Shown here: positions 2,312 to 64,000 of the stretch, in pieces
Layout of the letters: each line of letters starts with the position of its first letter
How positions within the stretch are numbered: position 1 is the stretch's first letter
Source: Tissierellia bacterium
Lineage (GTDB): Bacteria > Bacillota > Clostridia > Tissierellales > Peptoniphilaceae
Direction of reading: 5' to 3'
DNA length: 64,000 nucleotides
Assembly (NCBI GenBank): GCA_030535395.1
Contig: JAUNLK010000003.1
Coordinates: 62,001 to 126,000 of the forward strand
Notes under the pieces: model-generated
Database searches by the model: none
Seen by the model: the letters and a program-made list of their open reading frames with translations, nothing else
What the model was told of the DNA's origin: nothing
Position numbers and translations under genes: made by a program

Positions 2312-2338
2312 GAGAGGCATTACACAGGGAGAAAAAGC

Positions 2339-2471
2339 ATAAGAGCGCCAGAACCCCAGCTTCTGGGGTGGACGAGGAATGGAGTGATCGAAGATTCGGC
2401 GGATGCTCCATAGGTATCACAGCCTCAGTTCGAAACAAATTCCGGGGCAATCCGGCGACAAATTTCGAACC
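2339..2471 (+). promoter_or_regulatory. glmS ribozyme (GlcN6P-responsive self-cleaving riboswitch)
   Basis: The conserved core is present in order: AGCGCCAGAAC (cleavage expected between A2344 and G2345), GACGAGGAATGGAGT, ATCGAAGATTCGGCGGATGC, TATCACAGCC, then a long stem GTTCGAAA/TTTCGAAC (2428-2470) enclosing a P4-like CCGG/CCGG hairpin. Known glmS ribozymes cleave the mRNA when glucosamine-6-phosphate binds, which leads to mRNA decay and feedback control of GlmS. The position, directly before glmS, fits. Confidence 0.95.
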
Positions 2472-2475
2472 GTGA

Positions 2476-2543
2476 CTCCCGTGTTAGGCCCCAGTTCCGG
2501 GGCCAGTATTCCCGGGGTCTAAGACCCCCTGGCAACACGAGAG
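2476..2543 (+). other. Predicted three-way-junction RNA between glmS ribozyme and start codon
   Basis: CTCCCGTGTT (2476-2485) can pair with AACACGAGAG (2534-2543) at 9 of 10 positions. It encloses two GC-rich hairpins, GGCCCC/GGGGCC (2487-2504) and GGGGTC/GACCCC (2514-2528). The outer stem covers the first half of the glmS Shine-Dalgarno GAGGAG. It lies outside the P1-P4 core of the ribozyme. There is no U-tract, so it is not a terminator. A role in translation or RNA stability is inference. Confidence 0.55.
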
Positions 2544-19904: not shown

Positions 19905-20070
19905 GGGCTGAATAGCTCTTCCCACCGAAGAATGCAACGCAGCTAAACAGGTCTCCTGACTCGCACCTTTCCAGTACACGCCTTCCCCGGAAAGGACCGA
20001 GTGGCATCCGTGCACCGACATGCTTACAGTAGCGGGGGCTGTATTAGAATTTCACTAATTTCCCTTGATT
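19905..20070 (-). promoter_or_regulatory. Cobalamin (B12) riboswitch
   Basis: Minus-strand RNA carries the conserved CAGCCCCCGCTACTGT, GATGCCACT (B12 box region), GGGGAAGGC and CGAGTCAGGAGACCTG in the standard order and spacing. It begins immediately after the cbiB stop codon (20074) and is followed by a terminator and the cbiK start. It should repress the 16-gene segment cbiK to cobC when adenosylcobalamin or a related corrinoid is plentiful. cbiB lies upstream of it and escapes this control. Confidence 0.96.
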
Positions 20071-20073
20071 TAG

Positions 20074-21027
20074 CTAAACATAAATGAAATTGAATAGAAG
20101 CTGTGCCAGAATGACCCCCAAAGAGCTCACCCGCCACAGTATTTGATTTGTCCTTTTAATGTCCTCAGGCTCAATCTTTCGAATGTCGTCCCCAATGGTG
20201 GGCTTCTCCACGAATTTTCCAAAGTAGAAGTGGCCTCCCCCCAGTTGAATCCCCAAAATGCCGGCCAACGCCGACTCGGGAAATCCACTATTGGGAGAGA
20301 GATGGGCCCGGGCATCCCGCCTTAAAATCCTCAGGCCCTCCCCCCAACTGCCCGGGGAGAGGAGGACCATGAGAAGCCCGGTGAGGCGGGCCGGGATGAA
20401 ATTGGCCACATCGTCCACAATGGCCGCGGCCCTGCCCAGATCCACATACTTGTCATTGCGATAGGCAATCATGGAATCCATGGTGTTGATCATCTTGTAG
20501 GCCCAGCCCCCCGCCGGCCCCAGGAGGGCCAAGTACAGGAGGGGGGCAATGATGCCGTCTGAAGTGTTTTCCGCCACCGTTTCCACCGTGGCCCTAAGGA
20601 TCTCCTCCCGGGAGAGCTCGCGGGTGTCCCTGCCCACAATATAGGAGAGGCGGTGGCGCCCCGCCTCCAGGGACTCCTCCAGGGCCCTGGCCACTTTGTC
20701 CGCCTCCTCCACGAGAGTTTTGGCACTCAGTGAGGTCCAGGCCACATAGATGGAAAAGATGAGGCCCAGAACCGGAGGCAGGAGGGCGAGGATCAGTGCC
20801 GGGACAGCAAAGGCCACCGCCACATTGAAAATGACCATGGCAAGGCCCCACGCCCGGAGGCCCCTTGGGCTTTTGATCCTACTTCGCCCAAGTTTTTCCT
20901 CCCAGTGAATGAGCTTTCCCATGACCTCCACGGGGTGAACGAGGCCCCTGGGATCTCCAAAAATCAGATCCAGGAGGGCGGAAATCAAAAAAAATATGCC
21001 AAAGAGGATGGACAGGTTCGTTTTCAC
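20074..21027 (-). CDS. cbiB: Adenosylcobinamide-phosphate synthase
   Basis: A 317-residue membrane protein of the CbiB family: LLDLIFGDPRGLVHPVEVMG at the N-terminus, YIVGRDTRELSREEILRATVE, VAENTSDGIIAPLLY, and MIAYRNDKYVDLGRAAAIVDD. It attaches aminopropanol (or its phosphate, made by CobD) to cobyric acid. Several hydrophobic segments are visible. The GTG at 21027 follows GGGGGGAGG. It is upstream of the riboswitch and without its own terminator, so read-through into the riboswitch is possible. Confidence 0.94.
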   Translation of the reverse strand: MKTNLSILFGIFFLISALLDLIFGDPRGLVHPVEVMGKLIHWEEKLGRSRIKSPRGLRAWGLAMVIFNVAVAFAVPALILALLPPVLGLIFSIYVAWTSLSAKTLVEEADKVARALEESLEAGRHRLSYIVGRDTRELSREEILRATVETVAENTSDGIIAPLLYLALLGPAGGWAYKMINTMDSMIAYRNDKYVDLGRAAAIVDDVANFIPARLTGLLMVLLSPGSWGEGLRILRRDARAHLSPNSGFPESALAGILGIQLGGGHFYFGKFVEKPTIGDDIRKIEPEDIKRTNQILWRVSSLGVILAQLLFNFIYV

Positions 21028-34410: not shown

Positions 34411-34872
34411 CTATATCAATTCATCGATGTCGTCCACCAGGTCCCGGGGATCCACCTTGGACAGATAGTGACCCACCACGGCTCCGTCCCGGTCCAGGAG
34501 ATATTTCTCGAAATTCCAGCGAATATCGTCGCCATCGTAGTCCCTCAGGGCCTTGAAAATGGGGTGGATCTCCTCCCCCACCACCTGAGTCTTGGCAAAT
34601 AAGGGGAAACGCACACCAAAGTTCTCCACGGCAAAATCGTATATTTCCTCATTACTTCCCGGTTCCTGGCCCCCAAACTGATTGCTGGGGAAGGCCAAAA
34701 TTTCAAAACCGTCGTCGTGAAATCTCTCATGAAGCCGCCTGAGACCTTCGTACTGATGGGTGTAGCCACATTCACTGGCCACATTGACGATGAGTAGCAC
34801 CTGACCTCTGTAGTCGGAAAGCGATTTTACCTCACCTTTAATGTCCATAGCTTGCAGCGATAGTAGATCCAT
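34411..34872 (-). CDS. Glutathione peroxidase family protein, single cysteine
   Basis: A 153-residue thioredoxin-fold peroxidase. The catalytic tetrad is present: Cys35 (NVASECGYTHQYEGL), Gln69 (NQFGGQEP), Trp119 and Asn120 (RWNFEK). The usual FPCNQF cysteine is a serine (FPSNQF), and no other cysteine exists, so the resolving cysteine of thioredoxin-dependent 2-Cys members is absent. It must be recycled by an external thiol. It probably removes organic hydroperoxides in this anaerobe. It is divergent from the peroxiredoxin gene. Confidence 0.93.
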   Translation of the reverse strand: MDLLSLQAMDIKGEVKSLSDYRGQVLLIVNVASECGYTHQYEGLRRLHERFHDDGFEILAFPSNQFGGQEPGSNEEIYDFAVENFGVRFPLFAKTQVVGEEIHPIFKALRDYDGDDIRWNFEKYLLDRDGAVVGHYLSKVDPRDLVDDIDELI

Positions 34873-34975
34873 GAAATCCCCCCTTTTGGCCTATTATAAA
34901 GGAAGAATTCAATTTTCTCAACGGTTCCGACATCCTTTTCCCATGGAAGCTGCCTGTAATTTATGAAAACTTCCC

Positions 34976-35112
34976 CGGAAAATCTCCCGACCTTCAGGGG
35001 GACGGGATGGAATTTTTCCAAGGTGGAACCTGCGGGGGATAAAAAAATCCCCTTTTGGGATATATATAAAAGGAGAACTCTATGTAGAAAAGCGCCTCTC
35101 AACGGAGAGGCA
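34976..35112 (+). promoter_or_regulatory. Structured leader of the peroxiredoxin gene with a start-stop codon pair
   Basis: In order: an imperfect long stem (34976-35029); GGGGAT/ATCCCC (35035-35052) which shares its 3' arm with the alternative stem ATCCC/GGGAT (35047-35061); AAAGGAG followed six bases later by ATGTAG (35082-35087), a start codon immediately followed by a stop; and the hairpin GCCTCTC/GAGAGGC (35094-35111). The real ribosome binding site AAAGGA lies just after it. Regulation is inferred. Confidence 0.45.
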
Positions 35113-35127
35113 CGGAAAGGAATGTCT

Positions 35128-35574
35128 ATGGCAATTTTACAAAAGGGCGGCCAAGTGCCCGAGTTTACCCTGAGAGATCAACACGGCGAAAAAATCAGCT
35201 CCAAGGATATCAAGGGGAAAATCCTCCTCTCCTTCCACCCCCTGGCCTTCACCTCCGTGTGCACCGACCAAATGAGGGACTTGGAAAATAACTACGACCG
35301 CTTCCTGGAAAAGGGCGTGACCCCCATTGGCCTCAGTGTGGACCCCTATCCCGCCAAGGGCGTGTGGGCCCAGAGCATTGGCCTGTCCAAGCTCTCCATT
35401 TTGGCGGACTTCCACCCCAAGGGAGCCCTGGCCGAGGCCTGCGGCGTCTATATCGACAAGGCGGGGATCAGCGGAAGAGCGGCCCTGCTCATTGAAGACG
35501 GCAAGGTCCTCTGGTCCAAGGAGTACGGCCAAGGGGAGCGCCCCGATGTGGAGGAAATTATCGCCCAACTATAA
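35128..35574 (+). CDS. Peroxiredoxin (AhpC/TSA, BCP-like)
   Basis: A 148-residue protein with the peroxidatic Cys45 in SFHPLAFTSVCTDQMRDLE and a second cysteine at 105 (EACGVY). The TxxC motif is intact (TSVC). Members reduce hydrogen peroxide and alkyl peroxides, using thioredoxin-type reductants. The ATG at 35128 is preferred because AAAGGA is 6 bases upstream; an ATG two codons earlier is possible. An open frame further upstream runs through the structured leader and is not family sequence. Confidence 0.92.
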   Translation: MAILQKGGQVPEFTLRDQHGEKISSKDIKGKILLSFHPLAFTSVCTDQMRDLENNYDRFLEKGVTPIGLSVDPYPAKGVWAQSIGLSKLSILADFHPKGALAEACGVYIDKAGISGRAALLIEDGKVLWSKEYGQGERPDVEEIIAQL

Positions 35575-35575
35575 A

Positions 35576-35607
35576 GGAAAAAGATGCCCTCGGGCATCTT
35601 TTTTTTT
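35576..35607 (+). terminator. Terminator after the peroxiredoxin gene
   Basis: GATGCC/GGCATC with a short loop, flanked by AAAAA and TTTTTTTTT, directly after the stop codon. Confidence 0.92.
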
Positions 35608-35780
35608 GCCGAAATTTATTTTTCATTGAAAAAGAAGTCGGTCATCCTAAAATTTTGATGCCCCATGGGAAATTTAGACCAAGGAAAAAACAGCTCCCCC
35701 ATGGCCAATGGCTGAATCTTGGGGGAATACTCTTTAAAGGCTCCGAGGCTCCGGGGCAATTTCCAAAACCATCTTTCAAT

Positions 35781-36045
35781 TTAAAAACTCAAAACCAGAG
35801 CTGAAAAATCAACTTCCCTCCCTCTTTCTACTTTTAAAAACTCAAAACCAGAGCTGAGAAATCAGCTCCCCTCCCCCTCTGTACTTTTAAAACTTTCAGG
35901 CAGAGATGGAAAATCTGCTTCCCTCCCCCCTTTCTACTATTAAAAACTTTAAGCCAGAGATGAGAAATCAGCTTCCCTCCCCCTTTCTACTTTTAAAAAC
36001 TTTAAGCTAGAGATGAAAAATCAGCTTCCCTCCCCCTCTGTACTT
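35781..36045. repeat. Five tandem copies of a 53-bp unit
   Basis: Copies begin at 35781, 35834, 35887, 35940 and 35993, each exactly 53 bases; a partial sixth begins at 36046. The unit is TTAAAAACTY, a variable AAAGCCAGAG part, CTGAGAAATCAGCT (a short hairpin in the best copies), then a pyrimidine tract CCCTCCCCCTTTCTACTT. It lies between convergent transcripts, after the peroxiredoxin terminator and before the PFOR terminator. No gene is supported between 35575 and 36151; 35608-35780 shows nothing I recognise. Confidence 0.93.
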
Positions 36046-36116
36046 TTAAAACTTCCTTCCTTTAAAATAAGCCCCCTCTCAGCTCCCCCTGCCAGAGGTC
36101 GCCATTTTTCCCACAC

Positions 36117-36144
36117 AAAAAAGCCCACCGAAGTGGGCTTTTTT
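36117..36144 (-). terminator. Terminator after pyruvate:ferredoxin oxidoreductase
   Basis: AAAGCCCAC-TTCG-GTGGGCTTT on the minus strand, a UUCG tetraloop, followed by TTTT; 8 bases beyond the stop codon. Confidence 0.93.
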
Positions 36145-36151
36145 AGCATGC

Positions 36152-39703
<3,552 letters not shown>

Positions 39704-48891: not shown

Positions 48892-48927
48892 TGTAGCACC
48901 TCCCTTTCTTTAGAAAAGACTCGCCCC

Positions 48928-48952
48928 GTCAGGTAAAATTTTCAAACCTGAC
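48928..48952 (-). promoter_or_regulatory. Hairpin in the rplU leader (L21-leader-like)
   Basis: GTCAGGT and ACCTGAC form a 7-bp stem with an 11-nt loop in the 5' untranslated region of rplU. L21 leaders are a known autoregulatory RNA class in Bacillota; position and size fit, but the consensus could not be checked. Confidence 0.5.
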
Positions 48953-48972
48953 AAGTGCGGTTACATCGCTGT

Positions 48973-62507: not shown

Positions 62508-64000
62508 TTGTATTGCTATCAGTGCGGAGAAAAATTAATCGAGGGGGCACGGTTCTGTCATCACTGCGGTGCAGATCAATCCAAGGCCATGGAGGCCATG
62601 GAGCTTTCCCTCCACGGCGCCCACGGGGCCCCCAAAAAATCCAAGGGGCAGGATCAAACTGTGGAGCAGACCAGAATCTTCCGTAGCAGCCAACATCCTC
62701 CCCAAGGGGATGAGGCGGGAAGGGACCAATCCCTCCAGGACTATGTCCGGAAAATCGATCGGGAAGTTCAAAAGAATGTAAAGCAAAAAGAGGACACCAT
62801 GGACCTGGACCGCAGGGTCATTGAGGAGGAGCTGAAAAAATCCTCCTCCCAAAAGGTCCAGGGGGTGGAGGAGAAGGCGCCTCCCAAGAAGAGCTTTAAG
62901 AGCCTCTGGCACGACTTCATCAATGAAGAGGACAATCCCTACTCCGTCTTCGGCGCCTGGGCCAATGAGGCAGAGGCCCAGGAGGAGCTCCCCTCCCCCG
63001 AGGAGATGGACGCCACCCTGGCAGAGGACGAGGAGACCACCGAGACCCGAGAGCCCCTGGAGGCCAAGGCAGTGCCCAGTCCCCAGAGTCCCCTGAAATT
63101 CCTCTCCAATTTGCGGCAAAAATTTACAAAGGCAGGCGGGCCCACTGACGAGGAAGCCCTGATCCAGCCCCGGGACGGCTACGAGATGGCCCCGGAAGTA
63201 GCCCCCTCGGTGGAAAAAGCCCAGATGGCCCCGGAGGTGGATGATTCCCTCGAAAGGGAGCAGATTCAGCCCCGGGACGGCTACGACGTGGCCCCGGAAG
63301 TAGCCCCCTCGGTGGAAGAGGCCCAGATGGCCCCGGAGGATGATGATTCCCTCAAAAGGGAGCAGATTCAACCCCGGGACGCCCATGGCGCACTGGAGGT
63401 AGCCCCCTCGGTGGAAGAGGCCCAGATGACCCCGGAGGAGCTCCCCTTGGCGGAGGATGCCCTCACAGAGGAGGCCCTTACAGAGGACGAGCCTCAGAGG
63501 GAGGACAGGGCCCAGCGGGGATTCTCCCTGAGCTTCCTCAAGCTGCCCTTCCTGAAGAGGGAAGCTGCCCCGGAACATGCTGAGCACACGGAAAAGCTGG
63601 AGGCCGTTAAAGAGGAGTCCCCTGCCCCTGAGTTCCAGGCAGTCGAAGCCCCCGGCCCCGAAGTGGCCCCGGCCCCAAGGGAGCTTGAAGCCCCCGGCCC
63701 GGTGGAAGTGACCCCCGAGGATTCCAGGGCCAGGGAAAAAGCCCCCCTCCAGGAGGCCCAAGGGGAGCAGCCAGCCGCCCCCGCCCCGCCCCTGGAGGAG
63801 TCAGAGGAAACCCAGCTGCCTGAGGAGAAAGTGGCCCAGCCCTTTGGCCTCAACTGGAGCATCGCCTACGAGGGCCTGCGAAACACCCTCCGGGCCCACA
63901 GCCCCGTGGTCCCCATCCTCCTTCTGCTCCTGGGTGGTTTTTTCTACGGCTACCCCATCTTCGCCATTCTCCGGGAAGTCAGTGTCCCCTCCCTCTTGGC
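62508..64000 (+). CDS. Zinc-ribbon protein with long disordered region and transmembrane segment, partial
   Basis: Read from a TTG at 62508 after AAAAGGAGGGATCAGAC; the frame is open to the window edge (497 codons). The first 20 residues form a zinc ribbon with Cys3, Cys6, Cys17 and Cys20 (YCYQCGEKL, RFCHHCGA). A long charged, Pro/Glu/Ala-rich region follows, with three 34-residue repeats (from residue 219), and then a hydrophobic stretch (VVPILLLLLGGFFYGYPIF) near residue 465. Similar zinc-ribbon membrane proteins occur in Bacillota with unknown roles. The C-terminal domain is outside the window. Confidence 0.8.
   Translation, partial: MYCYQCGEKLIEGARFCHHCGADQSKAMEAMELSLHGAHGAPKKSKGQDQTVEQTRIFRSSQHPPQGDEAGRDQSLQDYVRKIDREVQKNVKQKEDTMDLDRRVIEEELKKSSSQKVQGVEEKAPPKKSFKSLWHDFINEEDNPYSVFGAWANEAEAQEELPSPEEMDATLAEDEETTETREPLEAKAVPSPQSPLKFLSNLRQKFTKAGGPTDEEALIQPRDGYEMAPEVAPSVEKAQMAPEVDDSLEREQIQPRDGYDVAPEVAPSVEEAQMAPEDDDSLKREQIQPRDAHGALEVAPSVEEAQMTPEELPLAEDALTEEALTEDEPQREDRAQRGFSLSFLKLPFLKREAAPEHAEHTEKLEAVKEESPAPEFQAVEAPGPEVAPAPRELEAPGPVEVTPEDSRAREKAPLQEAQGEQPAAPAPPLEESEETQLPEEKVAQPFGLNWSIAYEGLRNTLRAHSPVVPILLLLLGGFFYGYPIFAILREVSVPSLL
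63162..63467 (+). repeat. Three 102-bp in-frame tandem repeats
   Basis: Units begin at 63162, 63264 and 63366. Each encodes 34 residues starting IQPRDGY and containing VAPSVEEAQMAPE; the third is divergent at both ends. Copies one and two are nearly identical in DNA, indicating recent duplication. Confidence 0.9.

What the first reader, a model, noticed from the sequence alone, without database searches (positions are those of the whole stretch)
35781..36060. Five tandem 53-bp repeats of exact period between convergent genes
The period never varies although the copies differ in sequence, so spacing appears to be under selection or the array is recent and drifting. Each unit has an A-rich start, a potential GAAA-loop hairpin and a strand-asymmetric pyrimidine tract. 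It is too short-spaced and lacks unique spacers for CRISPR. It could bind a protein at five helical-phase-matched sites (about five turns each), act as an iteron-type site, or be a fork or recombination feature.
Basis: partly seen in the sequence, partly recalled or inferred. Interest (0 to 1): 0.6.

Follow-up and report, generated by a model that had tools for sequence, protein, structure and literature searches.

The report
Ordinary intergenic 53-bp minisatellite array
Five drifting copies of a 53-base sequence sit in the probably untranscribed gap between two genes that end towards each other; they look like an ordinary bacterial minisatellite made by repeated local duplication, one of about fifteen unrelated arrays of this sort in the same genome, and nothing found suggests a dedicated function.

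Summary
The array is real: 5.1 copies of 53 bp at 35780-36051, far beyond chance. It lies between terminator-like hairpins of two convergent genes, a peroxiredoxin (+) and nifJ (pyruvate:ferredoxin oxidoreductase, -). The claims built on it mostly fail. The period is 53 only net: unit 3 has compensating -1/+1 indels that shift its core by one base. The hairpin is stable in one unit of five, with no compensatory changes. The A-rich start and pyrimidine tract are real, but there is no G-quadruplex motif. Copies differ as in a duplication-built array: incompatible variant columns, and shifts of three or four units that match better than shifts of one or two.

The unit occurs nowhere else in 99% of the own genome, in 129 family relatives, in 84,980 species genomes, or in viral, phage and plasmid records. 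In five close relatives nifJ is followed by gpx, without peroxiredoxin or array, so the array is lineage-specific. The genome holds 14 other intergenic arrays with unrelated units and periods of 33-153 bp that show no helical phase. Best reading: a locus-specific minisatellite (VNTR-type) grown by slippage or unequal exchange, without dedicated function. Strain copy-number data, the decisive test, were unavailable.

The parts
35780..35832 (.). repeat unit 1 (53 bp)
35833..35885 (.). repeat unit 2 (53 bp); the only unit with a stable hairpin (35851-35868, GAGCTGA-GAAA-TCAGCTC)
35886..35938 (.). repeat unit 3 (53 bp net; one A missing, one C extra)
35939..35991 (.). repeat unit 4 (53 bp)
35992..36044 (.). 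repeat unit 5 (53 bp)
36045..36055 (.). partial sixth unit (start only), sharing the four-A start of unit 3
35122..35574 (+). peroxiredoxin gene (AhpC/TSA), left flank, points into the array region
   Evidence: Pfam PF00578, 7.8e-23; start at 35122 is inferred
35578..35608 (+). intrinsic terminator-like hairpin with T run after the peroxiredoxin gene
   Evidence: I6; -10.2 kcal/mol, z -4.0
36117..36144 (-). intrinsic terminator-like hairpin with T run after nifJ
   Evidence: I7; -13 kcal/mol, z -5.8
36152..39703 (-). nifJ, pyruvate:ferredoxin oxidoreductase, right flank
34411..34872 (-). gpx, glutathione peroxidase family; directly follows nifJ in five of the closest relatives

Best explanation
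It is a locus-specific intergenic minisatellite (a VNTR-type tandem array). A 53-bp stretch of the spacer between the two terminators was duplicated in tandem by replication slippage or by unequal exchange between copies, in steps that sometimes took several units at once. The copies then drifted by substitutions and one-base indels. The period is exact (net) because duplication copies it, not because spacing is selected. The array persists because it lies in probably untranscribed DNA between the 3' ends of two genes, where extra length probably costs little. Shown: the array, its lineage specificity among the genomes held, the mosaic of variants, the lack of a conserved hairpin, and similar unrelated arrays elsewhere in the genome. 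Inferred: slippage or unequal exchange as the mechanism, absence of transcription, and lack of function.
For: Unit confined to one locus in 99% of the genome. No related array in 129 family genomes, 84,980 species genomes, IMG/VR, plasmids or phages. In five of the closest relatives nifJ is followed directly by gpx, with no peroxiredoxin or array between. Fifteen intergenic arrays of unrelated units and periods of 33-153 bp in this genome (about 10 per Mb), and others in relatives G003 and G109. Periods show no helical phase (Rayleigh p about 0.48). Self-identity 74, 67, 87 and 85% at shifts of 1, 2, 3 and 4 units, with variant columns that conflict (11 against 48), as expected from duplications of several units or exchange between copies. 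Stable hairpin in one of five units, no change on both sides of any pair. Array lies between two terminator-like hairpins. Published intergenic VNTRs of like size: Spneu26 (51 bp, 65% matches, alleles of 1-9 units) and Spneu35 (49 bp, 1-5 units) in S. pneumoniae (PMC1315331).
Against: No strain data, so copy-number variation is not shown. The stretch AAATC..CT.CCCTCCC is the best-kept part of the unit, which a binding site would also explain; with five copies the difference has little weight. In G000 6 of 14 classifiable arrays lie in convergent gaps that make up 16% of intergenic DNA (p about 0.015, post hoc); this fits tolerance, but a role in convergent gaps is not excluded.
Confidence: 0.86

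Rival explanations
1. Cluster of binding sites for a DNA-binding protein (nucleoid protein, or an iteron-like or fork-related factor), with five sites on one face of the helix.
For: Net period 53 is 5.05 turns at 10.5 bp per turn; the core AAATC..CT.CCCTCCC is well kept.
Against: Core spacing is 53/52/54/53. The unit is nowhere else in the genome. No initiator or recombination gene lies next to it. Other arrays in the genome share no phase. No counterpart in relatives. From general knowledge, TTTTAAAA tracts are not the strongly curved type.
Confidence: 0.06
2. Transcribed element (small RNA, or mRNA 3' end structure or backup terminator) acting through the hairpins.
For: Unit 2 folds into a perfect 7-bp stem with a GAAA loop (z -5.0).
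Against: Four of five units lack the stable hairpin; no pair changes on both sides; both flanking genes have terminator-like hairpins before the array; no Rfam match there.
Confidence: 0.04
3. A member of a dispersed palindromic repeat family (REP/BIME, BOX or MIRU type) that expanded at one locus.
For: Unit length and intergenic tandem form resemble boxB (45 bp) and MIRU units.
Against: One locus only in the genome, no dispersed single copies; no relatives elsewhere.
Confidence: 0.03

Closest known systems
Intergenic VNTR/minisatellite loci of bacteria, e.g. Spneu26 and Spneu35 of Streptococcus pneumoniae (PMC1315331)
   Same: Single-locus intergenic arrays of about 50-bp units in 1-9 copies; in Spneu26 the copies are also imperfect (65% matches).
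   Different: There copy-number variation between strains was measured; here no strains were available.
MIRU minisatellites of Mycobacterium tuberculosis (PMC3635867)
   Same: Minisatellite arrays, with copy-number change as the variation that is scored.
   Different: MIRUs are one sequence family at many loci (general knowledge); this unit is at one locus.
BOX elements (tandem 45-bp boxB) of S. pneumoniae (PMC1315331)
   Same: Intergenic tandem units of similar length.
   Different: BOX has boxA and boxC subunits and many genomic loci; this unit is at one locus.
REP/BIME palindromic units of E. coli (PMC2884548)
   Same: Intergenic, with some palindromic character.
   Different: Those are dispersed in many copies with conserved palindromes; here there is one locus, and the palindrome is intact in one unit of five.

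Membership tests
Bacterial intergenic minisatellite (VNTR-type) | Head-to-tail repeats of more than about 10 bp at one locus | tested here: met
   5.1 x 53 bp; one locus
Bacterial intergenic minisatellite (VNTR-type) | Lies outside coding sequence | tested here: met
   Gap between peroxiredoxin and nifJ
Bacterial intergenic minisatellite (VNTR-type) | Copy number varies between strains | not testable with these tools
   Only one genome of the genus is held
Dispersed repeat families (REP/BIME, BOX, MIRU) | Related copies at many loci of the genome | tested here: not met
Dispersed repeat families (REP/BIME, BOX, MIRU) | Conserved palindrome (REP/BIME) | tested here: not met
CRISPR array | Near-identical repeats separated by unique spacers | tested here: not met
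   Copies abut with no spacers
Iteron origin | Initiator (Rep) gene next to the repeats | tested here: not met
   Neighbouring genes are metabolic, transport, repair or redox genes
Iteron origin | Constant helical spacing of the core | tested here: not met
   53/52/54/53

The most novel reading that the evidence does not exclude
Arrays in convergent gaps of this genome, this one included, serve as length or structure buffers between converging transcription units (for example for supercoiling or read-through), with sequence free to change.
Probability: 0.05. Interest if true: 0.45.

Novelty: new member of a known kind. Interest (0 to 1): 0.1.

Why it matters
It matters little by itself. It shows how an exact period can arise by duplication without selection, and it gives a possible typing marker for this species. 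The number of such arrays in this small genome is mildly interesting.

Tried and rejected
Dispersed repeat family (nhmmer and patterns over 99% of the genome): rejected. Mobile, phage or plasmid origin: no match; the 12 viral pattern hits have no significant similarity to the unit. Homologues in other species: 68 pattern hits in genome contigs are chance or other repeats (best nhmmer E 0.75). G-quadruplex: no motif on either strand. Hairpin enrichment in array units generally: z values overlap those of random intergenic 60-mers. Conserved structured RNA: no Rfam match near, no paired changes. Helical phase of array periods: none. A weak match at C20 (L039:2577) lies inside a gene and is chance. 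A paper search for 53-bp MIRU units gave nothing.

Full report
OBSERVATION. TRF finds 35780-36051, period 53, 5.1 copies, 85% matches. Over 219 columns the intergenic region matches itself at 162 positions at its best shift; 300 dinucleotide-preserving shuffles give a mean of 82 and a maximum of 98. So the array is real. The units are 35780-35832, 35833-35885, 35886-35938, 35939-35991 and 35992-36044, followed by a short partial sixth. Pairwise identities over 54 aligned columns run from 40 to 49. The period is 53 only net: unit 3 lacks one A near its start and has one extra C in the pyrimidine tract, so the core AAATCNNCTNCCC is spaced 53, 52, 54, 53.

ANATOMY. The left gene is a peroxiredoxin (AhpC/TSA, + strand) and the right gene is nifJ (- strand), so the two are convergent. 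Each is followed by a terminator-like hairpin with a T run: 35578-35608 on + and 36117-36144 on -. The simple terminator scan did not list these readings, probably because its stem count absorbs the T runs; the folds (-10.2 and -13 kcal/mol) and the sequence show them. The array lies between the two hairpins, so it is probably not transcribed (inference). On the unit alignment no pair changes on both sides, and the central C-G pair is broken in four of five units. There is no G-quadruplex motif on either strand.

HISTORY. Ungapped self-identity is 74% at a shift of one unit, 67% at two, 87% at three and 85% at four; part of the contrast comes from the indels of unit 3. Variant columns conflict: columns 11, 12, 15 and 22 group units 1-2 against 3-5, while columns 48 and 50 group units 2 and 5 against 1, 3 and 4. 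All four combinations occur, as expected from duplications of several units or exchange between copies; recurrent mutation is an alternative for single columns.

DISTRIBUTION. The window lies in a 1.486-Mb draft genome (22 contigs); I read 99% of it as stretches. The unit occurs nowhere else in it (nhmmer, next best E = 1; pattern with three mismatches). It has no counterpart in 129 other genomes of the family: the best matches there are 20-40 base pieces. A two-unit pattern in 84,980 species genomes gave 68 stretches, none with real similarity to the unit. The tool notes that the own genome or very near records may be left out of that search. Viral contigs, phages and plasmids gave nothing.

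SYNTENY. In 29 nifJ loci from relatives, hprK is usually on the other side of nifJ as here. In five of the closest (L177, L178, L179, L182, L185) gpx follows nifJ directly and in the same direction. The nifJ-gpx gap is short in L177 and longer in L179, without this array. Here the peroxiredoxin gene lies between nifJ and gpx on the opposite strand. A peroxiredoxin homologue is present in 29 other family genomes, but in the eleven loci examined it is not near nifJ or gpx. So the convergent gap, and the array in it, are specific to this lineage among the genomes held. Some relatives carry unrelated short-period arrays near nifJ (L179, L197, L202, L203).

GENOME BACKGROUND. With a simple hexamer gene finder of my own (crude, 86% coding), TRF arrays of period 30 or more and score 100 or more number 15 in intergenic DNA of this genome, about 10 per Mb. 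Sampled relatives gave 4 in 200 kb (G003), 2 in 200 kb (G109) and 0 in 400 kb (G065). The other arrays have no copy of this unit. Their periods (33-153 bp) show no common helical phase (Rayleigh p about 0.48). Six of 14 classifiable arrays lie in convergent gaps, which hold 16% of intergenic DNA (binomial 0.015, post hoc). Their units are not consistently richer in hairpins than random intergenic pieces.

MECHANISM. The best-supported account is tandem duplication by slippage or unequal exchange in DNA that tolerates extra length, followed by drift. Exact net spacing then needs no selection. Published analogues are single-locus intergenic VNTRs of 49-51 bp in S. pneumoniae, with alleles of 1-9 units (PMC1315331). 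MIRU loci of M. tuberculosis show that such arrays change copy number at a measurable rate (2.7e-3 per locus per year, PMC3635867). Slippage itself and lack of function are inferred, not shown.

VERDICT. An ordinary member of a known kind. The missing test is copy number across strains; only one genome of the genus is held.

Noticed in passing
whole genome G000 (e.g. L033:16195-16613, L034:11659-12150, L050:14430-14907, L073:10042-10435, L088:15404-15710): About 15 intergenic tandem arrays with unrelated units and periods of 33-153 bp; 6 of 14 classifiable lie in convergent gaps (post hoc p about 0.015).
   Followed up: partly
window 34411-36152: A peroxiredoxin gene lies on the opposite strand between nifJ and gpx, which are adjacent and co-directional in five of the closest relatives; a lineage-specific insertion or rearrangement.
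   Followed up: partly
window 63161-63440: A 102-bp (34-codon) repeat of 2.8 copies inside an open reading frame that begins with a zinc-ribbon-like CxxC motif pair (62508 to the window end).
   Followed up: no
L179:5278-5322, L197:5311-5363, L202:1227-1319, L203:5299-5351: Unrelated 18-23 bp tandem arrays next to nifJ in relatives, so this gap seems to gather repeats independently.
   Followed up: no
window 19929-20088 (-), 2333-2481 (+), 48907-48972 (-): Cobalamin riboswitch, glmS ribozyme and L21 leader, all known Rfam families.
   Followed up: no
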